A DNA stretch of 64,000 bases, taken from the NCBI RefSeq assembly GCF_002878395.1, contig NC_061115.1:215332963-215396962 (forward strand), written 5' to 3'. Numbering within the stretch: the first letter of the stretch is position 1; every line of letters starts with the position of its first letter. Under the pieces are notes generated by a model. That model saw nothing but the letters and a program-made list of their open reading frames with translations. It had not been told where the DNA came from and searched no databases. The translations under genes were made by a program, and so were the position numbers. Positions 1 to 62,068 of this stretch are shown here, one piece after another. The DNA comes from Capsicum annuum. Its lineage: Eukaryota > Streptophyta > Magnoliopsida > Solanales > Solanaceae.

Positions 1-206
1 TTTCTTATTGTGCTCTTTTAGTGTCTTGAGGCAGGAGTACGACGTGGTGGTGAGGTTCAGTTTCTTGTAATGCTTTTTTTCTTGTAAGGTTCAGTTTTCA
101 CTGTTGTGTAATATATTCTAAATTAATTTGTAGCAATTACTCCAGAATTAATCAACTTTTCTTCTTTCATGTAATTAAAAGCCCTATACCAACCAAATTT
201 TGAGAC

Positions 207-1391
207 GCGGGGGGGGTGAATGAAAAATTGGACGTTTGGAGGCAAACCCTTGAATCTAAGGGGTTCAGGGTGAATAGATCCAAGACGGAGTATATGGAAG
301 GCAAGTTTAGTGTCTTGAGGCAGGAGTACGATGTGGTGGTGAGGTTGGAATCCCAGGATGTTTGTAAGAGAGAATAGTTTTAAGTATCTTGGGTCTAAGA
401 TCCAGATTGATGAGGATGTCTCTAATCGTATTGGAGCAGGATGGATGAAGTGGAGACTCGTTTCAGGAGTGTTGTGTGATAAGAAGGTGCCCTTAAACTT
501 AAAAGGCAAATTCTACCGAGTGACAGTCCGTCCGGCCATGCTCTATGAAGCGGAGTGTTGGTCAGTCAAGAACTCACACCTCCAAAAATTGGTGGCGGAA
601 ATGAGAATGCTGCATTAAATGTGTGGACTTACTAGAGGGGATCAAGTTAGGAATGAGATTATTCGGAAGAAGGTGGGAGTGGCTTCAGTGGAGGATAAGA
701 TGCGGGAAGGAAGATTGAGATGGTTTGGGCATGTGATGAGGAGGGGCACGGATGCCTCAGTTCGTAGGTGTGTGAGGCTAGCTTTGGATGGCTTCAGGAG
801 AAGTAGAGGTAGGCCGAAGAAATACTGGACGGAGGTGATTAGACATGACATGGAGCAGCTACAACTTACTGAGGACATAACCCTAGATACGAAGGTGTGG
901 AGGGCGCGGATATAGGGTAGAAGGCTAGTGTGAGTGTGTGGGTTGTAGCAAGTAGTTAGGTGATTTTCTTGTGTAGCCGGGTTAGTATTCTTTGGACTGT
1001 GTCCATAGGTAGGAGTCTCTAGCCAGGAGAATTTGGGTGTGGTGGGTGTCTTTGGTCTGTGTGTGTATGTTCCTACTTGGTGAGTGTCCTATTTCTTAGT
1101 CCTTATTTCGTAGTGCTCTTATTTCTCTTATCTCGCATTTTCTATGATTTCAATTTTTGCAATTTTATTCCTTATTTCTATTATGTCATCCATCCTGCTG
1201 CTTGTTTCATTACGACCTTGTTTACTATTCTTTATCTTGAGCCCAGGGTCTATCGGAAATAGGGTCTATCGGAAACAGCCCCTCTACTTCTTCGGAGATA
1301 GCAGTGTGGACTGCGTACATCTTACCCTCCCCAGACCCCACTTTGTGGGAACACACTGGGTTTGTTGTTGTTGTTGCTGTTGTTTTTGTTA
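207..1391 (+). mobile_element. RTE-clade LINE, 5'-truncated, with broken RT C-terminus
   Basis: Positions 212-912 encode the C-terminal part of a non-LTR reverse transcriptase polyprotein. Recognisable stretches are [36 protein letters not shown] and [10 protein letters not shown], which recur in better-preserved copies at 38302-38900 and 44122-46929. The frame is broken near 355 and by a TAA stop around 616-618, so this copy is dead. A 3' UTR follows, ending in a conserved module (about 1300-1365) and a TTG-rich tail (1360-1391), the usual end of solanaceous RTE LINEs. The upstream 20-58 repeats 310-345, so the 5' side is rearranged or is a second fragment. The RTE assignment rests on recalled family features, not a search. 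Confidence 0.85.
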
Positions 1392-3369: not shown

Positions 3370-5100
3370 AACAGTTCCTAAGTTAATACTGTATTATTTT
3401 TACAACCTTAGTGTCCGCGCCAGCTTTCTCACACCTCAAAAAAAAAACAGTTCCTAAATACTCAATTTATAACCCCTAGTGTCCGAGTCGGCTTTCTCGC
3501 ACCTCGAAAAAAAAACAAAAAACAAAAAAAAGTTCCTAAGTATTCAATTTCATGACCGTAGTGTAAAAGTCAGCTTTCACGCACCTCGAAAAAACAAAAA
3601 AAAAAAAACAAATAAACAGTTCCTAAATATCTAGGCCAGCTTTCTCGCACCTCGGAAAAACAAAAAAAGAGTTCCTAAATATTCAATTTTACGACCGTAG
3701 TGTCCGAGCTAGCTTTTCTTGCACCTCGAACAAATCGAAAAAACAGTTGCTAAAAAACAACGAGTGGTGTTAATTTTACCTTCTCGATACAATTCAGAGT
3801 TGAAATATATGTCAAATTCATTAAAGCTTTGAGCATTAAATTCAACATAAAAGACACAATTTTAAACTTCAAAACATCTCAACCACAAACCTAAACACAT
3901 CAACTAACTAAAAAACGGAAAATAAACAGTTCCTAAATATCTAGTCCAGCTTTCGCGCACCTCAAAAGAACAGTTACCTCACAAAAACAGTTCACATCTC
4001 AATTACAAACCTAAACAGATCAACTAACTAAAAAACAGAAAATAAACAGATCCTAATTTAATAATTTTTACGACCATAGTGTCCGAGCCAGCTTTCTCAC
4101 ACCTCAAAAAAGAAAACAGTTCCTAAATACTCAATTTTATAACGCTAGTGTCCGAGCCAGCTTTCTCACACCTCAAAAAAAAAAAAAAAGTTCCTAAATA
4201 CTCAATTTTATAAAGCTAGCGTCCGAGCCAGCTTTCTCACACCTCCAAAAAAAAAAACAAAAATATAGTTCCTAAATATTCAATTTATAAACCCTGGTGT
4301 CCGAGCCGGCTTTCTCACACCTCCAAAAAAACAAAAAAAAACAGTTCCTAAATACTCAATTTTATAACCCTAGTGTTCGAGCGAGCTTTCTCGCACCTCA
4401 AAAAACAAAAAAAGTCCCTAAATATTCAATTTTATAACCCTAGTGTTTGAGCCAGCTTTCTCGCACCTCAAAAAAAACAGCTCCTAAATACTCAATTTTA
4501 TAACCCTAGTATCCGATCCAGCTTTCTCGCACCTAAGAAAAACAAAAAAAAACAGTTCCTAAATACTCAATTTTATAACCCTAGTGTCCGAGCCAGTTTT
4601 CTCCCACCTCCAAAAACAAAAAAACAGTTCCTAAATCTTCAATTTTATAACTCTAGTGTTCGAGCCAGTTTTCTCGTACCTCCAAAAAACAAAAAAAAAC
4701 AGTTCCTAAATACTCAATTTTATAACCCTAGCATCCGAGCCAGCTTTCTCCCACCTCGAAAAAACAAAAAAACAGTTCCTAAATATTCAATTTTATGACC
4801 GTCGCACCTGAAAAAACAAAAAAAACAGTTCCTAAATGTTCAATTTTACGACCGTAGCGTCCGAGCCAGCTTTCTCGCACCTCAAAAAAACAAAAAAACA
4901 GTTCCTAAATATTCAATTTTATGACCGTCGCATCTCGAAAAAAAAAAAAACAGTTCCTAAATGTTCAATTTTACGACCGTAGTGTCCGAGCCAGCTTTCT
5001 CACACCTCAAAAAACGAAAAAACAGTTCCTAAATATTCAATTTTACGACCGCAGTATCCGAGCTAGCTTTCACGCACTTACAAAAAAACTCAAAAACAGT
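3370..5100. repeat. Minisatellite of ~65-80-bp units containing a SINE 3'-tail block
   Basis: About 22 units are visible, each with a CAGTTCCTAAATA start, a CAATTTTATAACC middle, a GTGTCCGAGCCAGCTTTCTC block and a GCACCTC plus poly-A/CAAA end. Unit length varies mainly in the A-run. The block from ACCGTAGTGTCCG through GCACCTCGA matches, in reverse orientation, the 3' end of the tRNA-derived SINE seen more intact at 43884-44104 (GATGTCCGGTCAGCTTGC ... ACCTCGA). A partial copy of the sequence just right of the array (5110-5157) also appears inside it at about 3755-3810, so the array expanded together with flanking DNA. Confidence 0.85.
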
Positions 5101-19499: not shown

Positions 19500-20455
19500 T
19501 TAAATTGAACCTTCACTCCTAGAAGACGTACCTTCTAGTCGAGTCATTCCATTTGACTCTTAGAAGACGTACCTTTTAGTTGAGTTATTTCCCTTGATTC
19601 CTAGGAGACGTACCTTTTAGTCGAGTCATCTCCTTTGATTCTTATAAGATGTACCTTTTAGTCGAGTTATTTCCCCTTTGATTCCTATAAGACGTACCTT
19701 TTAGTCGAGTCATTCCCCTTAATTCCTATAAGGCATACCTTTTAGTCGAGTCATTCCCTTTGATTCCTATCAGACGTACCTTTAAGTCTAGTCATTCCCT
19801 TTGGTTCCTATAAGACATACCTTTTAGTCGAGTTATTCCCCTTGATTTCTATAAGACGTACCTTTTAGTCGAGTTATTTTCCTTGATTCCTATAAGACGT
19901 ACCTTTTAGTTGAGTCATCCTCCTTTAATTTCTATAAGATGTACCTTTTAGTCGAGTCATTTCCTTGATTCCTATAAGACGTACCTTTTAGTTGAGTCAT
20001 CCCCCTTGATTCCTATAAGACGTACCCTTTAGTCGAGTCATCCCCCATGATTCCTATAAGACGTACCTTTGAGTTTAGTAATCCCCCTTGATTCCTAGAA
20101 GACGTACCTTTTAGTCGAGTCATTCCCCTTGACTCCTATAAGACGGACCTTTTAGTCGAGTCATTCCCTTTGACCCCTAGAAGACATACCTTTTAGTCGA
20201 GTCATTTTCTTTGATTCCTATAAGACGTACTTTTTAGTCGAGTCATTCCCTTTTATTCCTATAAGACGTACCTTTTAGTCAAGTCATTCCTCGACCCCAA
20301 GAAGAAGTACCTTCTAGTCGAGTCATCTCCTTTGATTCCTATAAGACGTACCTTTTAGTCGAGTCATCCCATTTGATTCCTATGACGTAGCTTTTAATTG
20401 AGTCATCCCCTTTGATTCCTATAAGATGTACCTTCTAGTCGAATCATACCAATTA
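19500..20455 (+). repeat. 42-bp tandem array inside the LTR element
   Basis: About 22 head-to-tail units, each TTGATTCCTATAAGACGTAC followed by CTTTTAGTCGAGTCATTCCC. Units vary by point changes and 1-3 bp indels. It lies between gag and the 3' LTR, where tandem arrays are known in Tat/Ogre elements. Confidence 0.92.
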
Positions 20456-33345: not shown

Positions 33346-33622
33346 TAAAATGGCCTTTCACTTTCCAATAAACCTTGCAAAATCTCTTCCTTTTGCTCCT
33401 CCCTTAACACTACTATACTCCCAACATAAACAACCGAACCCTCGGGTTTCGTGTCGAGCCACGTGCAATAAGGTTCACATTTTTCAAACAAATCACACCC
33501 GAACAACGTGTCTTCAAGGTCACATCCGTAGTAAGCTGAAGGAAGCAAACGCCCAATCGAACAAATCCCCAACACCTCGAGAATTTTCAAGGATTTCTCT
33601 TTCAATTTATCGAAAGTATTAA

Positions 33623-33904
33623 GGAAAAAGGCATCGTTTTCACCCCAAACTATATCCAAAAGGTCGAAGTCACACCTAAATTATATTAGTAACCTATTAC
33701 ACACCTAAACTATAAAAAAGTGAAACTATTTACACCCTGTCAGGGTACCACCACTTGCATGTGGTGTAGTGTTTTACACGCTCTGTCACGTCAGTAAAAA
33801 GTATCACTTTTTTATAATTAAGGTATGTAATAGGTCACTTATATAGTTTAGGTGTGGATTCGACTTTTCGACTATAGTTTGGGGTGGAAACGATGTCTTT
33901 TTCG
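33623..33904. mobile_element. Foldback MITE with ~90-bp inverted ends
   Basis: The left arm GGAAAAAGGCATCGTTTTCA then CCCCAAACTATA is inverted at the right (TATAGTTTGGGGTGGAAACG then ATGTCTTTTTCG). The arms run about 90 bp each. A short internal dyad (CCACTTGCATGTGG) lies near the centre. TTA may be the target duplication. The same terminal sequences bound the 9.9-kb element at 49970-59849. It interrupts the UGT75-like pseudogene. Confidence 0.75.
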
Positions 33905-34065
33905 TTAATGTTTTTAGCCGTTTACTTTTGTTATTTAATAGGCTGGACGCGCCTAAAATAAGTGTAACACATACGCCTTAAAATGAGGGTCGCGGGGAGG
34001 TAATAATGTTAAGGTGTGTAATAGGTGACTTGTATAATTTATGTATGGCTTAGACTTTTCTTTGT
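33905..34065. repeat. Isolated copy of the giant element's right-terminal segment
   Basis: TTTTTAGCCGTTTACTTTTG, GGCTGGACGCGCCTAAAATA, GTCGCGGGGAGGTAATAATG and AAGGTGTGTAATAGGT match 59640-59800 in order and orientation. It directly abuts the 33623-33904 MITE. Confidence 0.65.
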
Positions 34066-37699: not shown

Positions 37700-48710
<11,011 letters not shown>

Positions 48711-49620: not shown

Positions 49621-49969
49621 AATTATCCTTAGATTTCTCAAATTGAACAAGTATAGTTAAACATCTATTTCTAATATATAGTGAACAAGTAAAGATGGAC
49701 AAAAAGAGTAATAGATGTTACTATTAATGAAGTATTAAATATTACTATTGGCATGTAATATATAAAATGTGTCTTCTAACTTGACTTAACCATGCATCTC
49801 TGTCGTTAAACTTTGTATGTATACAGGCACGTTTAAATATTTATAAAGTTGAACAAGCAAATACATGTATTATATATGATCAATTTATGTACTACGCGAC
49901 ATCTTATATATATTATGTTGCATGGGATGTATGTGTCTACTTTTTTAGTTTTATACACATTCTGAGTTT
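49621..49969. other. AT-rich spacer
   Basis: No gene or recognised repeat between the SINE fragment and the giant inverted element. Confidence 0.4.
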
Positions 49970-50329
49970 GGGAAAAATCATCGTTTCCACCCCAACTTAT
50001 ACACTAAAAATCTAGGTCACACCTAAACTATCGCAGTGACCTATTACACACCTAAACTATAAAAAAAGTGGAACTATTACCTTCTCACGACAATCATGCC
50101 CAAGTTTAATGAATGGAGTGTACTCCACTCATCCTGTGATGATGCCGCGAGTTTTATTTAATTCTTCTATTTAATTAATAAATAGCCCTTGTGATTAAAA
50201 ATAAATAACTAAAAGATATTCAACAACTCCTCCTTCTTCACTTCACTTATTCTTTGCTTCACTTTCCCTTCAAAACCAAGAAAATTCCGATGACAAAAAA
50301 TATCCATCAATTCACCATTAAAAATATGA

Positions 50330-50715
50330 AATTATTGAATTGTTTACTTATTCTTTGCTTCACTTTCCCTTCAAATCCACTTCCTTCTTCACTTTCTTCT
50401 CTTCATCAACAACTCCTCCTTCTTTTACTCACTTAATCAAACAATGCAAATCTTGTATCAAAGCCAAACTCATTGTCACCGAGGCTTTTCACCTTCAACA
50501 GACTCGAAATACAATCATTTGGATGATGCTAATAAGGTTTTTGAGTTAATGGAGGTGAAAGATGTGGTTTCTTGGAACGCTTTGGTAACTACGTATTCTC
50601 AGATTGGACGATTTGACGAGGCTTTGGGATTGTTTGAGAGGATGAGCGAAGAGGAGATTGAATGAATGTTGTAACATATAGTGTTGTGATTTCAGGTAAT
50701 GCACAGAGGGATTTA
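50330..50715 (+). pseudogene. PPR protein fragment (PLS-type, At5g16860-like)
   Basis: The first part, around 50385-50480, resembles a PPR N-terminus (SFTHLIKQCKSCIKAKLI). It jumps directly to mid-protein repeats in the frame through 50444-50660: DDANKVFELMEVKDVVSWNA, LVTTYSQIGRFDEALGLFER, MSEEEIE. A 1-nt loss near 50662 shifts the frame; beyond it NVVTYSVVISGNAQRDLG is still readable. So this is a deleted, frameshifted copy of a PPR gene, normally an organelle RNA-binding protein. The At5g16860-like label is from memory. It sits ~360 bp inside the left end of the giant element, as expected for captured host sequence, though it may have been there first. Confidence 0.8.
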
Positions 50716-51629
50716 GGTTAGGGAAACTCATTGCAATTTATTTTTGTGTTTGTAACTGCAATTTTTTTAACAGTTGTGCGGATTTGTGGAGGGTTTTGTA
50801 ACTTTGGATGTTAACAATGGTGATTTTGTGATTTCGATGATAATTTTAGTAGTGGATGTTGAATTTTATGGTGGATGTTTGTGATTTTTGTGATATTAAT
50901 GGTTGTGTTGTGATTCCGATAATGAAATTTATGGTGGATTCTTAAAAATATTGTGGTAAGATTTGAGTTTGATGATAATGGTGTCAATGGTGATGTTTTA
51001 ATGGTGATTTTGGTGAAGAAGAAGCAATTGAAGAATATGGGACTCACATATTAAAATAAATAAAAAATCAATTTTATTGATATTTTTTCAATTGAAAAAA
51101 TAAAAAAAATAAATTTTATTAACATTTAGTTACCAATTCTTCAAACAAATGATCTTCAATTTTGATTCTTCAATTTTAATTTTGAAAGACAAATTTGGGA
51201 ATTAGGGTTCTTAATTTGTAGGGGTTTTGGGCTCTAGGTGACAAAAGAGTTTTAAAATAAAGTGTGGGTGACACAAGACTTAATAATTGAGTGGAGGTGA
51301 CAATTACTTTATTAAGGATTAAGAAAGTAAGAAAAATTTGAAAATAACACACAAGTTTTTTAATTTACACTTTGATCCAATGTAAAACCTAATATAAGTA
51401 GAAATGGAGGGAAAAAAGGCACATTTCTCTCTCTTCTCATTTATTGGAGTTTTCTCTCTCTTCGTAATTTTTGTTGTTCATTGTTGTTGTTGCTTTATTC
51501 ATCATCTTCTTCTTCATTATCATCATCTTGTTCTTCATTATCATCTCTTCTCGCTCATCATCATCATCTTCTTGTTGTTGAACACTGTTGTTACCGCTAC
51601 TATTGCTACTTGATCAATTTTTTTTAGGT
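50716..51629. other. Unassigned DNA inside the giant element
   Basis: G/T-rich on the plus strand at 50760-51010 with repeated GGTGATTTTGTGAT-like words, then A/T-rich. 51480-51600 is a TTG/ATC trinucleotide-rich tract. No gene seen. Confidence 0.4.
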
Positions 51630-52115
51630 CAAATTTATTCGTATATCACTTGGGAATTACTTATAGGTGATTTTAGTAAGTAAAGTTATAATTTTTAGTT
51701 GAATTTCTCATCTGGGTGTATCTGCTACTACTGTTTTTTCAACAGTAGATAAAACATATAACGTGAATCCAACAGATGAGTAATTTATTGCACAGATGAG
51801 TAATCTGTTACAACATATTGACTAATCTATTGCAACATATTGACTAATCTGTTGGATTTGTATTATAGTGTTGCAACATAAATCCAACATATGGGTCACC
51901 TGTTGCAACAGACTAGTTATATGTTGCAACAGATTACTCACTTGTTGCAATAAATGACTCATATATTGGATTCATGTTGCAGGTTCTATAAATTGTAGCA
52001 GTAGAAAATATACCAAATAAAAAATTCAACAAAAATCATAATTATACTTACAAAATCACCTATGAAGTAATGTCCAAGTGATATACGAACAAAATTTGAC
52101 CTAAAAAAATTCTAA
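51630..52115. repeat. Inverted repeat (left sub-hairpin)
   Basis: TTTTTTTAGGTCAAATTTAT through GTTGAATTTCTCATCTGGGT (51645-51720) is inverted at about 52010-52110 (AAAAATTCAACAAAAATCAT to GACCTAAAAAAATTC). The loop (51740-51990) is made of TGTTGCAACA/CAACAGATGAGTAATCTGTT units. A similar arrangement at 58560-59050 mirrors it. Confidence 0.75.
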
Positions 52116-52740
52116 AAATTTCAACAGGGGCACAACGAATAGGTGAAACACATGAAAAATTTCATGAAACAGGTAAAAAAGACAAAAATAGTGTATCATA
52201 CATCAAATGCAAAAGGATCGAGGGGACAAGCATTTGAGTTCTCCTAAAAACATTTAAGTTCCCTGGTATTTTAATTGTTTTCTAATGGATAACCCATCTA
52301 TTATAGCAGATTTTCTATTTGTTTGATAATTTTCAATAGATGAATCATCTGTTGCAACATGTTAGTCATCTGTTGATTCAAATTAAGCAATTATTAGTAA
52401 TAGCTAAATTGATTTAGCTAAATTAAAGACAAGTCTTTAAGACAATGGGACAAACATTTGAGTTCTCCTAAAAATATTTGAGTTCCCTGGTATTTCAATT
52501 ATTTTCCAACAGATCACCTATTTGTTGCAACAAGTTAGTCATCTGTTACAATAAATGCTTATAACAGGTTAGTCATTTGTTGCTTCAAATTAAGCAATTA
52601 TTAATAATAATTCAATTTATTTAACTAAAATTGAAGACAAGACCTTAGACAAGGGTGAAAACGTTTGAGTTCTCCTAAAAAATATTTGAGCTTTAGTATT
52701 TTAAATTACTTTTCAACACATATTTTGTCTATTTAGTAAT
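52025..52740. repeat. Left arm of the large inverted repeat
   Basis: CATGAAAAATTTCATGAAAC, ATACATCAAATGCAAAAGGA, GTTCTCCTAAAAACATTTAA and later AGGGTGAAAACGTTTGAGTT appear in reverse order and orientation at 57945-58640. It is a mosaic of 30-50-bp shared blocks with CAACAGATGA-type repeats between them. Confidence 0.8.
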
Positions 52741-52939
52741 TTCCAACAGATGAATCATATGTTGCAACAACTTAGTCATCTGTTGCAACAGATGTCTATA
52801 TCTGTTTGATAATTTTCAATAGATGAATTAGTTGTTGCAATAAGTGAGTCTTTTGTTGCAACAGATGTTTATATCTGTTTGGTCATTTCCAATAAATGTT
52901 TTTATTTGTTTGGTCATTTCCAACAGATTACTCATCTGT

Positions 52940-55900
52940 TGTAACATGTTAGTCATCTATTGATTCACATTAAGTCATTATTAGTAATAACTAAATTGAT
53001 TACTAAAATAAAATATGAATTAATAAGTTCAATTACAATTTCAATTAATCTCATGGTAATTACACGATCAACTAGGTATGTTCGTCCTGAGTAGAGTGAT
53101 CAATTGACCAATTTTATTTGAAATGATTCAAACTAAGTCATCATTAGAAATAGCTATATTGATTTAACTAAAACTAAAGATGAATTAGTAAGTTCAATTA
53201 CAATTTCAATTAATCTCATAGTAATTACATGATCAACTATGTGTATTCATCTCAAGGAGAGTGATTAATCAACCAATTTTATTTCGAATGATTCAAATTA
53301 AGTCATTATTAGTACTAAATAAATTGATTTTGACTAAATTAAAGATGAATTGATAAGTCCACTAACAATTTCAATTAATCTCAATAATTAAATGATCAAT
53401 TAAGTGTTTCATCCTTAGTAGAATAATTAATTGACCAATTTTATTTTAAATGATTCAAATTAAGCCATTATTAGTAATAACTATGTTGATTTAACTAAAA
53501 TTAAACATGAATTAATGAGTTCACTTACAATTTTAGTTAATCTCATCGCAATTACTTGATTAACTAAGTGTATTCGTCTAGAGCAGAGTGATCAATCGAC
53601 CAATTTTATTTAAAATAATTCAAATGAAGATATTATTAGTAATAACTAAATTGATTTAACTAAAATTAAAGATAAACTTACAATTTCAGTTAATCTCATA
53701 GTAATTAAATTATCAACTAAGTGTATTCATCATGATTAGAGTGATCAATTGACCAATTTTATTTGAAATGAATCAAATTAAGCCATTATTCGTAATAACT
53801 AAATTGATATAACTAAAATTAAAGATGAATTGATAAGTTCACTTACAATTCCAATTAATCTCATAGTAATTACATGATCAACTATGTGTATTCGTCTCAA
53901 GGAGAGTGATTAATCAACCAATTTTATTTCGAATGATTCAAATTAAGTCATTATTAGTAATAAAGAAATTGATTTTGACTAAATTAAAGATGAATTGATA
54001 AGTCCACTAACAATTTCAATTAATGTATTCGTCCTTAATAGAACTATCAATTGTAAATTTTATTTAAAATGATTCAAATTAAGCAATTATTAGTAATAAC
54101 TAAATTGATTTAACTAAAATTAAAGACAAGACCTTAGACAAGGGGACAAACATTTGAGTTCTCTTAAAAACATCCGAGCTTTAGTATTTTAGATTATTTT
54201 CCAACATATATCCTATATGTTTGATAATTTTCAACAGATGAGTCATCTGTTGCAACAACTTAGTCATCTGTTACAACAGATGTCTATATTTGTTTGATAA
54301 TTTTTAATAGATGAGTCATTTATTGCAACAGGTTAGTCATCTGTTACAGCATATGTCTATATTTGTTTGGTCATTTCCAACAGATGTCTTTATCTGTTTA
54401 GTCATTTTCAACAAATTACTTATTTTTTGCAACATGCTAGTCATCTATTGATTCGTATTAAGCCATTATATTAGTAATAACTAAATTTATTTAACTAGAA
54501 TTAAACATGAATTAATAAGTTCAATTACAGTTTCAATTAATCTCGTGGTAATTACACTATCAACTAAGTGTGTTCATCCTAAGTAGAATGATCAATTGAC
54601 CAATTTTATTTAAAATAATTAAAATCAAATCATAATTAGAAATAACTATATTGATTTAACTAAAATTAAAGATGAATTAGTAAGTTGACTTACAATTTCA
54701 ATTAATTTTATAGTAATTACATGATCAACTAAGTGTTTCGTCTTAAGTAGAATGATCAATTAACCAATTTTATTTGAAATAATTAAAATCAAGCAATTAT
54801 TAGTAATAATTAAATTAATTTAACTAAAATTAAAGATGAATTGATAATTTTAATTTCGATTTCAATTAATCTCATAGTAATTACATGATCATCTAAGTGT
54901 ATTCGTCTTGAGTAAAGTGTTAATTGATCAATTTTATTTGAAATGATTCAAATTAAGATATTATTAGTAATAACTGCATTGATATAACTAAAATTAAAGA
55001 TGAATTGATAATTTCAATTACGATTTCAATTATTCTCATATTAATTACACGATCATCTTAGTGTGTTCGTTCTTAGTAGAGTGATCAATTGACTAATTTT
55101 ATTTAAAATGATTCAAATTAAGCCATTATTAGTAATAGCCAAATTGATTTAAGAATTACAATTTCAATTAATCTCATAGTAATTACATGATCATTTAAGT
55201 GTATAATCTATTGCAACAAATTTAATCTGTTGTAATAGATGAGTCATTCATTGAAAATTATCAAACAGATATACACATATATTGTAATAGATTAGTCATC
55301 TGTTGTAACAAATGTCTTTATTTGTTGGTCATTTCCGACAGATGACCAATCTGTTGCAACATATGGCTTTATGTGTTTGTTATTTCCAACAGATTACTAA
55401 TTGTTGCAACAGGTGACTAATCTGTTACAACAAACGTCTTTGTCTGTTTGGTCATTTTCAACAGATTACTCATCTTTTGCAACATCTTAGTCATCTATTG
55501 ATTCATATTAAGTCATTATATTAGTAATAACTAAATTGATTTAACTAGTATTAATAAGTTTAATTACTGTTTCAATTAATCTCATGGTAATTACACAATC
55601 AACTAAGTGTGTTCGTCCTAAGTAGAGTGATCAATTGACCAATTTTATTTGAAATGATTCAAACCAAGCCATAATTAGAAATAACTATATTGATTTAACT
55701 AAACTTAAAGATGAATTAGTAAGTTCACTTACAATTTCAATTAATTTTATAGTAATTACATAATCAACTAAGTGTTTCGTCTTAAGTAGAATGATCAATT
55801 GACCAATTTGATTTGAAATAATTAAAATTAAGCAATTATTAGTAATAACTAAATTGATTTAACTAAAATTAAAGATGAATTGATAATTTAATTACGATTT

Positions 55901-56080
55901 CAATTAATCTCATAGTAATTACACGACCATCTAAGTGTGTTCCTCTACAGTAAAGTGTTAATTGACCAATTTTATTTGAAATGATTTAAATTAAGACATT
56001 ATTAGTAATAACAACACTGATTTAACTAAAATTAAAGATGAATTGATAAGTTCAATTACGATTTCCATTAACATGTTGCA
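52940..56080. repeat. Satellite-like monomers of ~163 bp in three blocks
   Basis: A unit with TTATTAGTAATAACTAAATT, GATTTAACTAAAATTAAAGA, TCAATTAATCTCATAGTAAT, TACATGATCAACTAAGTGTA and GAGTGATCAATTGACCAATT recurs. Copies begin near 52979, 53136, 53304, 53466, 53632, 53787, 53953, 54467, 54625, 54793, 54962, 55124, 55513, 55672, 55837 and 55999. Spacing is mostly 155-169 bp. Blocks are separated at about 54180-54440 and 55205-55500 by CAACAGATGA-type repeats. Confidence 0.88.
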
Positions 56081-56304
56081 ATAAATGAGTAATCTGTTGG
56101 AAAAGACCAAACAGTTAAAGACATTTGTTAAAAATGACCAAACATATATATACATCTGTTGCAATAGATGACTAATCCGTTGCAATAACTGACTCATCTA
56201 TTGAAAACTATCCAACAAATATAGACATCTACTGCAACAGATGATTAAATTGTTCCAACATATTACTCATCTATTGAAAATTACTAAATAGACAAGATGC
56301 ATGT

Positions 56305-57947
56305 GAACTCAGAACCAAAATGAGCCACAAAATTTAAAAATTGACATATTTAAAAAGTTACCAAAATAGACTAAACGTAATAATTTGTTACATTTTCTAT
56401 TTTTTCTTAACGGTCAACCAACGGAGTTGGCTTTTACAAAAACGTAAGAATTTCTTACGTTTTACATTTTTTTGTTGTAAAACGTAAGAAATTCTTACTT
56501 TTTATAAAAAAAATATAAAACATAAGAATTTCTTACGTTTTACATGATGACCGAGGAAAAAATGCAGTGAATTATCAAATCAATTAAAAAGATACTAAAA
56601 AATGAGTTGTTCAACATAACAAAAAGTTACGTTCTTAACTTTTTTATAGCAGTGGTCCCTCACCCACAATTTCCTTTTCCACAAATGTCCCATCACTTCT
56701 ACTTTTTCCTCTTTTTACATACGATAATTATGAATATTTTGATTAGTTAAATTTATTTATATTTCACATGTAGTTTAAATAATTTATTTTTTTCTCTGTG
56801 TAATAAATCTTTACGTTTTACATAAAAAAAATTAAAAATAGAAGTATCAATTATCTCATTAACTTAACAATTTTCTTATATTTATTCTATATAAAAAATA
56901 ATCACTTTTATCCTTACTTATCCGATTTCTCTCTAAAAAAAATTATACTTTTGATTTTTTCTCTACTCCAAAATAGTGAAATGTTGAACTATCGTCGATC
57001 AAGTATGCTACTATATACAAGAATTATATTTTTTTGGTGTGTTAAAAATATGAAATTAATTTTTTCGGATAGTGATTCATCGTAGTTTTCAATTAGTGTT
57101 TCGATTAGGATATTGAGGAGACTCACATGCACAAATACGTTTCATATTATAATTAGCATATTTGATCGAAGTAGTAACATATTTGATACTTGTATATATT
57201 ATTACCTAAAAAAATATAATTCTTGTATATAGTAGCATATTTGATCGATGATAATTCAACATTTCACTATTTTGGACTAGAGGAAAACTCAAAAGTATAA
57301 TTTTTTTAAAGAGAAATCGGATAATTAAGGATAGAAGTGATTATTTTTTTTTGATATAGAATAAATATAAGAAAATTGTTAAGTTAATGAGGTAATTGAT
57401 ACTTCTTTTTTAATTTTTTTTTATGTAAAACGTAAAAATTTATTAGAAAAAATAAATTATTTGAACTACATGTAAAATACAAATAAATTTAACTAATAAA
57501 AAAATTCATAACTATCATATGTAAAAAGAGGAAAAAGTAGAAGTGATGAGACATTTGTGGAAAAAAGAATTGTGGGTGGGGGACCACTGGTATAAAAAAG
57601 TTAAGAATGTAACTTTTTGTTACGTTGAACAACTCTTTTTTTTTGAACCTTTTTAATTAATTTGACAATTCATTGTATTTTTTCCCTCGGTTATTGTGTA
57701 AAACGTAAGAAATTCTTACGTTTTATATTTTTTTTATAAAACGTAAGAATTTCTTACGTTTTACAAAAAAAATGTAAACCGTAAGAAATTCTTACGTTTT
57801 TGTAAAAGTCAACTCCGTTAGTTGACCGTTAAGAAAAAGTAGCAAACATAATAAATTATTACGTTTAGCCTATTTTGGTAACTTTTTAAATAGGTGGCCT
57901 ATCTCGGTCACTTTTTTAATTCTGTGGCTCATTTTGGTTTCGAGTTC
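56305..57947. repeat. 1.6-kb hairpin with ~735-bp arms
   Basis: GAACTCAGAACCAAAATGAG at 56305 is inverted as CTCATTTTGGTTTCGAGTTC ending at 57947. Pairing continues inward to about 57037 on the left (CTACTATATACAAGAATTAT) and 57205 on the right. The loop is about 167 bp. Each arm contains nested palindromes of the form ACGTAAGAATTTCTTACGT. The sequences just outside (GACAAGATGCATGT and ATATGTTGAAAAG) rejoin into the inverse of 52726-52750, so this hairpin looks inserted into an existing repeat. Confidence 0.88.
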
Positions 57948-58640
57948 ATATGTTGAAAAGTAATTTAAAATACTAAAACTCAAATATTTTTTAGGAGAAC
58001 TTAAACATTTGTCCCCTTGTCTAAGGTTTTGTATTAAAGACTTGTCTTCTATTTTAATTAAATTAATTTAGTTATTATTAATATTTGCTTAATTTGAATA
58101 AATAAATGACTGACCTATTATAAACATCTGTTGCAATAGATGACTAACTTGTTGCAACAAATAGATAATCTGTTGGAAAATAATTAAAATCTAGGGAACT
58201 CAAATATTTTTAGGAGAACGCAAATGTTTGTCCCATTGTCATAGAAACGTCTTTAATTTTAGCTAAATCAAGTTAGTTATTACTAATAATTGCTTACTTT
58301 GAATCAACAGATGACTAGCATGTTGCATTAGATGATTCATCTTTGAAATTATCAAACAGATAGAAAATCTGTTTTAACAGATGGGTCAACTATTAGAAAA
58401 CAATTAAAATATTAGGGAACTTAAACGTTTTTAGGAGAACTCAAATGCTTGTCCCCTTGATCCTTTTGCATTTGATGTATGGTATATTATTTTTGTCTTT
58501 TTTACCCGTTTCATGAAATTTTTCATGTGTTTTACTTATTCGTTGTGCCCCTGTTGAAATTTTTTTAAAAAAAAATTAGGTCAAATTTTGTTCGTATATT
58601 ACTTGGACATTACTTCATAGCTTATTTTGTAAGTAAAATT
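57945..58640. repeat. Right arm of the large inverted repeat
   Basis: Counterpart of 52025-52740: ACTCAAATATTTTTTAGGAG, CTTGATCCTTTTGCATTTGA, GTTTCATGAAATTTTTCATG and TAGGTCAAATTTTGTTCGTA in inverted order. Confidence 0.8.
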
Positions 58641-58689
58641 ATAATTTTTGTTGAATTTCTTATTTGGTGTATCTACTATTACTACAATT

Positions 58690-58990
58690 GATAGAACCTG
58701 CAACATAGATCCAATATATGAGTCATCTATTGCAACAAGTGAGTAATTTGTTGCAACAGATGACCCATATGTCGGATTCATATTACAACACTATAAAACG
58801 AATTCAGCAGATGAGTAATCTGTTGCAACATATTAGTCATATATGTTGCAACAGATTACTCATTTGTTGCAACAAATTAGTCATATATGTTGCAACAGAT
58901 TAGTCATATATGTTGCAATAGATTACTAATTTGTGCAACAGATTAGTCATATATGTTGCAACAAATACTCATCTATTGGATTCACGTTAC
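58690..58990. repeat. Dense TGTTGCAACA / CAACAGATGAGTAAT repeats
   Basis: Short dyad-symmetric units (ATCTGTTGCAACAGAT-like) packed head-to-tail, e.g. TTGCAACAGATTAGTCATAT repeated four times at 58850-58960. The same word family fills 51740-51990, 52330-52560, 52730-52960, 54220-54430, 55210-55500, 56060-56280 and 58080-58400. Confidence 0.85.
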
Positions 58991-59050
58991 ATGTTTTATC
59001 CATTAGTAAAAAACAACAGTAGCAGATACATCCAGATAAGAAATTCAACT

Positions 59051-59734
59051 AAAAAGTAACAAACATTAAAAAAAATAACAAAAAACATAAAAAAATAGCA
59101 AACACCAACAAATCAAGTTCCTGATTTTCGTCATAACTTAAAAGCCCTAATTTTTTACTTGTGAAAATCGACAAGAAACACTGAAGAACTCGAAGTTGTT
59201 GTCGCCGGAGAATATTGTCACGTCGACTGACGGTTGAAAGTCAAAAAGGAATGGGCAAGAACTCAAAACTATTTGTTGCCAGAGGTTGAAGTAACACAAG
59301 ATTGAAGAGAGAAATTTGATAAGTTGATGGTTGAGAGAAGTTAGGGAGAGAAACTATCAAGAGAACAGAGAGAGAGATTTGCAGAGGGATGGAAGTTTTG
59401 TGGGTGTGGGTTAATTTGTATTTTTGAAAAGATTAAAAAGTTTAGAAAATATTAATCAAGTCCACAATTAACCTAATCAAGTTTTTTAATTCTGTTTGAC
59501 CCTTTAAATTGGTCAATGTCACTAATCCTTCATTCAAGACTTAAAAGACATCTTTCCTTCAATTTTCTCTAGTTTGGAGCCCTAAATTGGCTTAAATAGG
59601 AATTAGGTTCAATAGATCAGTTGGAAATTAAAAGTACTGTATTTTTAATGTTTTTAGCCGTTTATTTTTGTTATTCAAAAGGCTGGACACACCTAAAACG
59701 AGTGTAAGAAACGTGCCTTAGAATGAATGTCGCG
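59051..59734. other. Unassigned DNA inside the giant element, right side
   Basis: 59100-59420 has a more gene-like composition with AAGCCCTAATTTT and a GA-rich stretch, but no frame or domain I recognise. 59640-59734 is the subterminal segment also found at 33905-34000. Confidence 0.4.
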
Positions 59735-59849
59735 GGGAGGTAATAGTTCTATTTTTTTATAGTTTAGGTGTGTAATAGGTTATTACGGTAGTTTAGGTGT
59801 GACCTATACTTTTAGTATATAGTTTTGGATGTAAACGATGACTTTTCCC

Positions 59850-62068
59850 TTTTAAGTTTCTATATATGCACATTTAAAGTTGGAGGTCGTAGATGCGAGT
59901 TGAGGTCGAGTTAGATGACAAATTTATTTATCATGCCATTACTATTTGTATTGTAAATTATATAAAAAAATATTTATTTGATAATTTTATTTGGGCCAAA
60001 TACTTATACGACTCGTTAAACTCGCTCAAAATTTTCATTTATAATCTTAAATTTAGCTTTATTTCAACTGAACATAATATCATATGCATTTAATTCATAT
60101 TGGACACAACAAGCCAAAAATGCATTCAATAAATAAAGGCAGAATACATAATTGGTGCTCTGAACTTGTCAATTCCTTCGTAATCAGGCAATGTTCCCAA
60201 TGAACACCAGAACCTATCATAAAGTGTCGCTATTAAACACTCTAGTCCGACCCAGCACATATCTTTTGAAGATGAGCCTTAGTGATTAGCTAACACTCTA
60301 ATTCATATAATAAAGATGATCTAAGCACCAAACTGCAAAACTTACCTTTACGCATAATACTGCATATGTGAATTTTCATTTCACTAAAGCTATATGTGCT
60401 AGCACGGCCCCCTCAATATCTTTCTCCATATATTTGGTGACTAATGGTCGTATTAATCACTGGTAGCAATTATTACGAATGAAGCACTCATACAACATGT
60501 TTTGTTCTCAGTTTAATATCAACAAAAAAAATAGAGCTCCAAATTAAGTTATTCGGCCTTGGATGTGAGTATTTAAGATGGATGCGGATCTGAAAGTTGA
60601 ATTTATCAAAATTTAAATTTTAAGATGCGAAGGGTGTAAATTTGATTATGAATATGAATGTAGCGATTCGACTAGAAAAAATCAAATATTATAAATATAG
60701 AGTATAAAGATATTTTAAAAATTCACTTTTGATTTTACTTATTCAATTAACAATCCGTTTGGATGGTGTTTTTGCATGGTATGATATGGTATAGTTACTA
60801 AAAGACCCATGTTTATTTTGATTGTTTCTTAAAATGTATGGTATGATATAGTTTAATTTCATGATTTAATAATCATGAAGACCCTCACTTTATGTAACCA
60901 CCGATTTGATAGTATCCATGATTTGTTTATTTTTTTTAATATGTCCTTACTTAATATTGTATAATCCCATTTTAACTTTTACCTTATATTATTAACTCCA
61001 CCTCTTACCCCAACACTCCCCCTCCCCAAATTTTTCTTTTTAAAAAATTCAAACTTTTTACTTATTCCACTCCTTACCTCGACCCGACCCCACCCCAACC
61101 AAAACCCTAACCCATTTTTAAAAAAAAAAAAATCAAAAACTTTTTCTTACCCCACCCTCACCCTCCAACCCCTTCCCCCCTACTAAACCTCCTTCCCCAC
61201 AAACTTCTATTTTCTTTTTAATATTATTTTTAAAATCTTTCAACAAATTTTCTTACACCACTTCAACCCCCAACATCTCGCCCCAACAATTTTTTTTCTT
61301 AAAAATAAAACTTTTTTTCTTGTCTCACCACTACCCCACCCCTACTCCAGTACCCCCTTCTTATTTATTTTTTTAAATAACTTTTTCTCTTATCCCGCCT
61401 CCTTTATCATATTTATTTTTATTATTTTGTGTTAAATATATACGGATATTTTTAAAAAATATTTTGCTACTTGCATAACGAACACAAGAAAATAAATAGG
61501 AAATAATTTATTTTTCTACAAAATATTTTTTTTAATTCCATAACGAACACAACCCGTAGTATACACAAAAGATGCATTCAAACTTTGTACTTGTCGTTGG
61601 AGTCACGTCTCAAAACATTAAAAAAAAATTGTTACTACAAAAAATAGTCCAAAAAAAATAAAATTTGTTACTACAAAAAATGAACCCAATTATATTTATT
61701 TTGATCTACTATTTTATTGACTTTATTAGAATTTATATAAATTTAACAACTTAATATATCTGTATGACACAAGTTATGACAAGTTAAAAAAAATATTATT
61801 TTATTAATAATTATTGATAAATTTAATATATATAAATTTAAAAACTTAATATATCTATATAACACAATATATGGCAAATTATGAAAAAAATTTATTTTAT
61901 TGCTAATAGTTATCGATAAATTTAACATTTATAGTAATTAAAAGTATTTTAATAAATTTACCAGTTATAATATAATATCATACTATCAGGCCAAATAATA
62001 AAATTATTATTAACCAACTGTTATCAATATAATCAATATCCAAACATTGTATTATACCATATATATAA
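59850..62068. other. AT-rich intergenic DNA with pyrimidine-rich tract
   Basis: No gene. 60980-61370 on the plus strand is rich in C and T (CCCCACCC-type runs). 60754-60800 (GTTTGGATGGTGTTTTTGCA) and 62030-62065 (inverse ATGTTTGGATATTG) could be ends of an old TIR element with AT-rich interior, but the match is short. 61760-61970 has repeated TTAATATATCTATATAACAC-type words. Confidence 0.4.

What the first reader, a model, noticed from the sequence alone, without database searches (positions are those of the whole stretch)
49970..59849. Giant 9.9-kb non-autonomous inverted element with a captured gene fragment
Matching inverted ends 9.9 kb apart enclose nested inverted repeats, satellite monomers, a hairpin and a PPR gene piece, with no transposase. 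If it moves as one unit, this is an unusual composite transposon that carries its own satellite array and host sequence. Seen: the inverted ends and interior. Inferred: that they belong to one element.
Basis: partly seen in the sequence, partly recalled or inferred. Interest (0 to 1): 0.75.

Follow-up and report, generated by a model that had tools for sequence, protein, structure and literature searches.

The report
Jumping gene nested inside another
In a pepper-like plant genome, what looked like one giant 9.9-kb mobile element is a small common gene-fragment-carrying element split by a second, 8.3-kb one, and that second element belongs to a large family packed with short repeated DNA signals of the kind some plant transposons use to fight silencing.

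Summary
The inverted ends (49970/59849) are real and belong to one element, but that element is only about 1.5 kb long. In 16 of 20 fetched sister copies the window's left part (to about 51220) adjoins its right part (from about 59570); none of the 20 carries the middle at that site. The 8,349-bp middle (51221-59569) is a second transposon with its own 9-bp target duplication. A copy on another chromosome matches it end to end (93.1% over 8,009 columns), with the same inverted arms, satellite and inner fold-back. Two longer relatives share its termini: one encodes MULE transposase and SWIM domains plus, convergently, DUF1985, a domain of VANDAL anti-silencing VANC proteins; the other DUF1985. 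It has no TIRs. A short motif (ATCTGTTGCA, often 21 bp apart) is dense in noncoding parts of the members read and rare in the background examined. Best reading: a VANDAL-like non-TIR MULE family of a Solanaceae (probably Capsicum), whose non-autonomous members carry motif arrays resembling VANC targets. Nesting and family are shown; the anti-silencing role is inferred.

The parts
49960..49969 (.). left target duplication of the outer element, TTCTGAGTTT
   Evidence: 8 of 10 match to 59850-59859 TTTTAAGTTT; relatives with 9-10-bp duplications
49970..51220 (+). left part of the outer, about 1.5-kb non-autonomous MULE-type element; TIR 49970-50097
   Evidence: in 16 of 20 fetched copies the inner edge of this part adjoins 59579-59849 with a 2-29-bp gap
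50513..50662 (+). captured PPR gene fragment, about 50 codons then a stop; part of the outer element and shared by part of its family
   Evidence: Pfam PF01535 9.4e-11; stretch found in 12 of 20 sister copies
51212..51220 (.). left 9-bp target duplication of the insert, TAATTTGTA
   Evidence: 7 of 9 to 59570-59578; empty sites of sister copies
51221..59569 (+). the insert: 8,349-bp full-length non-autonomous VANDAL-like (non-TIR) MULE
   Evidence: same termini in C12, C2, C4, XA, XB copies; 93.1% over 8,009 aligned columns to the C12 copy
51689..52951 (+). left internal arm of the insert, with 21-bp motif repeats
   Evidence: inverted match to 56069-56305 plus 57948-59058
52961..56071 (.). 163-165-bp satellite array inside the insert, with interspersed motif-rich blocks (e.g. 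54204-54439)
   Evidence: TRF; same array in the C12 and C2 copies
56069..56299 (-). right internal arm, inner part (before the inner fold-back)
   Evidence: inverted match to 52717-52951, 84%
56300..57951 (.). inner 1.65-kb fold-back element (two arms of about 740 bp, 88%) lodged in the right arm of the insert and carried by other family copies
   Evidence: present in the C12 and C2 copies; its loop lies at the window's spacing from a terminus in 9 further copies, 10.1 kb away in a tenth
57952..59058 (-). right internal arm, outer part
59059..59569 (+). right terminal region of the insert; end ...CTTCAATTTTCTC
   Evidence: 4,038 first-look candidates, 40 scored, the 39 others 91-93%
59570..59578 (.). 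right 9-bp target duplication of the insert, TAGTTTGGA
   Evidence: equal to the empty site in 6 of 12 sister copies, one base off in the other 6
59579..59849 (+). right part of the outer element; TIR 59723-59849
59850..59859 (.). right target duplication of the outer element, TTTTAAGTTT

Best explanation
Two DNA transposons are nested. First, a roughly 1.5-kb non-autonomous MULE-type element with 128-bp TIRs and a captured PPR fragment inserted at 49970/59849. Later an 8.35-kb non-autonomous, TIR-less MULE of a VANDAL-like family inserted into it at TAGTTTGGA (51221-59569). The second element is one of a large family; longer relatives with the same termini carry MULE transposase domains and, in convergent orientation, a DUF1985 (VANC-domain) gene, and transposase from such relatives presumably moves it in trans. 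Its body has almost no coding content: inverted arms, a 165-bp satellite, a nested fold-back and many copies of a short motif (ATCTGTTGCA / TGTTGCAACA), often 21 or 42 bp apart. I infer that these arrays are binding sites for the family's DUF1985 protein, which would keep such copies open to transposition despite host methylation, as VANC does for VANDALs. Shown: nesting, termini, target duplications, amplification as a unit, coding relatives, motif enrichment. Inferred: trans-mobilisation and binding by the DUF1985 protein.
For: Nesting: the outer halves adjoin in 16 of 20 sister copies, insert at that site in 0 of 20; empty site TAGTTTGGA exact in 6 of 12 copies, 8/9 in the other 6. Insert as a unit: C12 copy 93.1% over 8,009 columns, all seven sections 90-95%; C2 copy colinear with a 3-kb gap of N. 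Target duplications of 9 bp: C4 9/9, C12 8/9, C2 7/9, window 7/9; XA 9/9 and XB 7/9 read by eye from the flanks printed, placing the start of each run of G to fit. No TIR: best alignment of the two terminal regions scored 30 against a shuffled maximum of 32. Coding relatives: XB has PF10551 4.2e-12, SWIM 2.4e-9 and DUF1985 1.4e-12; XA has DUF1985 2.5e-17 and 4.7e-19. A DUF1985 copy on C1 shares the insert's right end over 711 columns at 91%. Transposase and DUF1985 hits lie within 20 kb in 9 pairs, XB included, all convergent, 0.22 expected. Motif WCTGTTGCA: 16, 22 and 29 copies in the insert, XA and XB against shuffled means of 0.08, 0.36 and 0.38; 1 in 54 kb of the window outside; 0 of 29 (XB) and 0 of 22 (XA) inside the coding spans tested, where about 6 and 3 would fall by length.
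Against: The window's own duplications are imperfect (7/9 and 8/10). XA and XB are only 72-81% like the insert at the terminal matches, so neither need be the present helper; no transposase was found in XA among the frames tested, and the closest DUF1985 relative was read only at its right end (2.7 kb). The motif was chosen on the insert, XA and XB themselves, and the C12 and C2 copies are close relatives of the insert, so its enrichment is not an independent test. Motif sharing could reflect descent of a 21-bp repeat rather than selection for binding. VANC motifs in VANDAL21 run in one orientation (PMC5735166, passages); here the insert has 7 forward and 9 reverse, XB 18 and 11, XA 19 and 3. 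The 165-bp satellite itself holds almost no motif. Periodicity at 10.5 bp is clear only in the insert. The long inverted arms could instead make double-stranded RNA and attract silencing. No methylation, small-RNA or binding data were available.
Confidence: 0.82

Rival explanations
1. One reading: one 9.9-kb composite transposon that carries satellite, hairpin and PPR piece and moves as a unit.
For: Inverted ends with matching orientation and 8/10 flanking repeats.
Against: 16 of 20 sister copies have the two outer parts adjoining without the middle; the middle occurs elsewhere with its own termini and duplications.
Confidence: 0.03
2. The insert is a non-autonomous non-TIR MULE, but its motif arrays have no role: they are by-products of replication slippage at a 21-bp unit, and the DUF1985 gene in relatives is an unrelated passenger.
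For: Tandem repeats expand by slippage; XA, XB and the insert share a 21-bp unit by descent; the 165-bp satellite itself holds almost no motif.
Against: The motif stays while backbones and periods of motif-bearing arrays differ (21, 51, 73, 135, 149, 359 among others); none inside the coding spans tested; spacings in the insert cluster at multiples of 10.5 bp (R 0.62, 21 non-independent pairs; weaker in XA and XB, 0.36 and 0.31); convergent DUF1985 linkage.
Confidence: 0.35
3. The insert acts as a silencing source: its 1.26-kb inverted arms and the fold-back make hairpin RNA and small RNAs that silence the coding relatives, as Mu killer does for Mutator (Mu killer recalled; that non-autonomous copies often induce silencing of autonomous ones is in passages of PMC10398659).
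For: Long internal inverted arms and the fold-back are kept in the C12 and C2 copies.
Against: The family has nonetheless thousands of first-look terminus candidates (3,235 left, 4,038 right); no transcript or small-RNA data.
Confidence: 0.25

Closest known systems
VANDAL / VANC anti-silencing MULEs of Arabidopsis (Hosaka 2017 PMC5735166, passages; Sasaki 2023 PMC10398659, abstract and passages)
   Same: MULE transposase, degenerate or absent TIRs, DUF1985 protein, short motif in noncoding tandem repeats, motif not found in the coding spans tested
   Different: Solanaceae-like host; different motif (ATCTGTTGCA against YAGTATTAY or AGTTGTCC/AGTTGTAC); both motif orientations in the insert; long internal inverted arms, a 165-bp satellite and a nested fold-back; the member in the window has no genes
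MULE-Solanaceae_1 clade (Dupeyron 2019 PMC6446971, table row seen in a passage)
   Same: 9-bp duplications, no TIR, SWIM finger, extra antisense gene
   Different: the row lists an unknown ORF and a PMD antisense gene; here the convergent gene has DUF1985; clade membership not tested by tree
Pack-MULEs, for example the tomato elements of Ferguson and Jiang 2012 (PMC3310237, abstract)
   Same: the outer 1.5-kb element: MULE-type TIRs, 9-10-bp duplications, captured gene fragment, multicopy
   Different: single TIR at each end; interrupted here by another transposon
Tetris, a fold-back transposon linked to satellite DNA in Drosophila virilis (PMC4079207, search listing only)
   Same: transposon with long inverted repeats and internal tandem repeats
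   Different: here the arms are internal, about 470-510 bp from the ends, and the element is a plant MULE

Membership tests
MULE superfamily (outer 1.5-kb element) | 8-11-bp target duplications and TIRs | tested here: met
   128-bp TIR at 85%; 10/10 duplications in L013 and L018, 9/10 in L010 and L026, read from 15 copies printed (the other 11 not tallied); window 8/10
MULE superfamily (outer 1.5-kb element) | related autonomous element with MULE transposase | not tested
   no coding relative of the outer family was sought
Pack-MULE (outer element) | carries a fragment of a host gene, shared by copies | tested here: met
   PPR domain in the window and in L015; stretch in 12 of 20 copies; parent gene not located
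VANDAL-like non-TIR MULE (insert) | 9-bp target duplication | tested here: met
   6 copies examined: C4 9/9, XA 9/9, C12 8/9, C2 7/9, XB 7/9, window 7/9 (XA and XB read by eye)
VANDAL-like non-TIR MULE (insert) | no or degenerate TIR | tested here: met
   best alignment of the two terminal regions within the shuffled range
VANDAL-like non-TIR MULE (insert) | MULE transposase with SWIM finger in members sharing the termini | tested here: met
   XB: PF10551 4.2e-12, SWIM 2.4e-9; none found in the window copy
VANDAL-like non-TIR MULE (insert) | DUF1985 protein gene in members | tested here: met
   XA, XB and L039
VANDAL clade proper | transposase groups with Arabidopsis VANDAL in a tree | not tested
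   no Arabidopsis transposase sequence was fetched
VANC anti-silencing system | family-specific short motif in noncoding tandem repeats | tested here: met
   motif chosen on the same members
VANC anti-silencing system | motifs arrayed in one orientation (VANDAL21) | tested here: not met
   insert 7 forward, 9 reverse; XB 18 and 11; XA 19 and 3
VANC anti-silencing system | protein binds the motif and removes methylation | not testable with these tools
   needs binding and methylome data

The most novel reading that the evidence does not exclude
A Solanaceae genome carries its own VANC-type anti-silencing system with a new target motif, ATCTGTTGCA set on helical turns of DNA, and its most successful passengers are 8-kb gene-free elements that are essentially mobile motif and satellite arrays with built-in inverted arms, carrying both the anti-silencing address and a potential silencing trigger in one unit.
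Probability: 0.4. Interest if true: 0.75.

Novelty: new variant of a known kind. Interest (0 to 1): 0.52.

Why it matters
It shows how two unrelated transposons can pass for one giant composite, and it gives a high-copy, recognisable family in a crop-family genome in which the idea that transposons evolve sequence-specific anti-silencing can be tested outside Arabidopsis. The non-autonomous copies are natural motif arrays without genes, so cis and trans effects can be separated. It also documents a satellite array that is dispersed as cargo of a DNA transposon.

Tried and rejected
Single composite element: rejected as an origin. The ends as two independent MITEs: rejected, since each has only its mate at full length here and sister elements have both ends; a short MITE with the same TIRs does lie at 33605-33914. 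Short TSDs (TTT or TTAA, PIF or piggyBac style): considered, dropped after the 10-bp duplications of sister copies. Inner arms as a separate fold-back inserted in the VANDAL-like element: no duplication was seen at 51689/59058 (by eye), and XA and XB match across 51689, so the arms are treated as part of the element. Target duplication of the inner fold-back: not resolved. Junction searches for a second composite copy, the search with the outer right end, with 50420-51330 and with the arm 52110-52330: not answered, machine busy. Ulp1 domain in the DUF1985 gene: not found in the 8 proteins sent, chosen from 73 frames printed (71 of at least 70 aa from XA and XB, plus 2 from L039); not excluded. 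The 2022 EMBO J paper on eudicot anti-silencing systems (10.15252/embj.2021110070) is not held; that it reports DUF1985, DUF287 and Ulp1 domains, helical motif periodicity and anti-silencing of non-autonomous copies is recalled, not read. A Solanaceae VANC-type motif was not seen in the listings (15 of 112 papers listed; 10 of 299), which is weak evidence of absence.
Full report
Observation. The window lies in a 3.21-Gb assembly.

The outer element. The left end (201 bases) has 1,613 first-look candidates in the genome; the 40 scored, the window's own among them, all begin at query base 1-4, so 49970 is a true terminus. I fetched 10 kb inward from 20 of the 39 others, the best-ranked ones less one short contig. 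In 16 of 20 the window's left part adjoins its right part with a gap of 2-29 bases; in four (L016, L020, L021, L025) the mate part was truncated, interrupted or not found; none of the 20 has the window's middle at that place. Of the 16, 15 are 1.38-1.74 kb end to end and one (L024) is 6.27 kb. The PPR stretch is in 12 of the 20: of the 16 joined copies 9 have it nearly whole, one in part and six not at all, so it marks a subfamily. The family has 128-bp TIRs and 9-10-bp target duplications (10/10 in L013 and L018, 9/10 in L010 and L026, of 15 printed; the others not tallied). The window's copy has an 8/10 duplication.

The seam. Twelve printed empty sites read ...TTCTTAGTTTGGAGCCC... or close variants; TAGTTTGGA is exact in six and one base off in six. 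In the window this is TTCTTAATTTGTA, then 8,349 bp, then TAGTTTGGAGCCC: a 9-bp duplication with 7/9 matches. The insert runs from GGGGTTTTGGGC to TTCAATTTTCTC. Its 10 stop-free frames of 60 or more codons (longest 92) match no Pfam family above cut-off.

The insert is a family that moves as a unit. Its left end has 3,235 first-look candidates (40 scored; the 39 others 94-96%), its right end 4,038 (40 scored; the 39 others 91-93%). Three left-right pairs were found by coordinates, on C12, C2 and C4. The C12 copy (8.18 kb) aligns over the whole length at 93.1% (8,009 columns), each of seven sections at 90-95%, including arms, satellite and inner fold-back. The C2 copy is colinear with a 3,000-base gap of N. 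For C4 only about 6 of its 15.4 kb was read: the left 4 kb matches the insert, a 1.8-kb stretch in the middle does not, so it probably has further inserted sequence. The inner loop gave 808 first-look candidates; 39 others were scored, nearly all matching only its first 120 of 172 bases. Among placed hits (35 loop, 32 left, 29 right), the loop lies 5.76-5.98 kb from the left end in five copies, 10.1 kb in a sixth, and 2.53-2.63 kb from the right end in four; the window has 5.8 and 2.4 kb. The fold-back is therefore shared cargo of many copies. Target duplications: C4 9/9, C12 8/9, C2 7/9; XA 9/9 and XB 7/9 by eye from the same output. In C4 the left duplication is preceded directly by about 50 bp of the right end of another copy.

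Coding relatives. Two longer elements have both termini in the right orientation: XA (C3, 17.3 kb) and XB (C11, 13.45 kb), 72-81% like the insert at the terminal matches. XB encodes a MULE domain (4.2e-12), a SWIM finger (2.4e-9), a sub-threshold MuDR DNA-binding domain and, on the other strand, DUF1985 (1.4e-12); XA has two DUF1985 frames (2.5e-17, 4.7e-19) and no transposase among the frames tested. The XB transposase piece resembles a Solanum tuberosum protein (65%). Genome-wide, DUF1985 relatives gave 14,866 first-look candidates and transposase relatives 8,725, 150 scored each. Of 128 placed transposase and 112 placed DUF1985 hits, nine pairs (XB, the source of both queries, among them) lie within 20 kb, all convergent, against 0.22 for random places (maximum 2 in 500). 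One DUF1985 copy on C1 lies 1.9 kb inside a right end that matches the insert's at 91% over 711 columns, linking the gene-free subfamily to a coding one.

The motif. Ten-mers such as ATCTGTTGCA (15, 20 and 27 copies in the insert, XA and XB; 2 in 286 kb of background) and TGTTGCAACA (18, 12, 7; 0) are shared by all three although most of their interiors do not align. WCTGTTGCA stands at 1.3-2.5 per kb in five family members against shuffled means of 0.04-0.38, with 0 of 29 (XB) and 0 of 22 (XA) inside the coding spans tested (2.9 of 13.5 kb and 2.4 of 17.3 kb). The motif was picked on three of these members, so this describes rather than tests. Spacings of the shorter core favour 21 and 42 bp (within one base of a multiple of 21 in 9 of 21, 10 of 26 and 22 of 51 pairs; 3.0, 3.7 and 7.3 expected); in the insert they cluster on multiples of 10.5 bp (R 0.62), more weakly in XA and XB, 0.36 and 0.31. 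In VANDAL21, VANC binds a short motif arrayed in one orientation in noncoding tandem repeats, and VANC proteins carry DUF1985 (PMC5735166, passages); VANDALs have degenerate TIRs (PMC10398659, passages). Orientation differs here: insert 7 forward and 9 reverse, XB 18 and 11, XA 19 and 3. The match in anatomy is close; function is untested.

Verdict. Nesting about 0.97; VANDAL-like family about 0.85; motif arrays as targets of a VANC-type protein about 0.4-0.5.

Noticed in passing
window 33605-34059: A roughly 310-bp MITE (33605-33914) with the same TIR family as the outer element, abutted by a second, degraded right end of that family (33905-34059).
   Followed up: partly
window 201-1380 and 44122-45502: Long inverted pair, 87-98% alike in pieces, about 43-45 kb apart, with further weaker copies at 38299-38907 and 46695-46928.
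   Followed up: no
window 19510-20447: 41-bp tandem array of about 23 copies; another array of about 75 bp at 4066-4800.
   Followed up: no
G000:C4 near 206508460 (L036): About 50 bp of the right end of one family copy, then the 9-bp AAGTAACTT, then the left end of the next copy: neighbouring copies share a target duplication.
   Followed up: partly
window 51619-52109 and 58645-59054: Each arm of the insert holds a palindrome of about 410-490 bp made from the element's own subterminal sequence.
   Followed up: no
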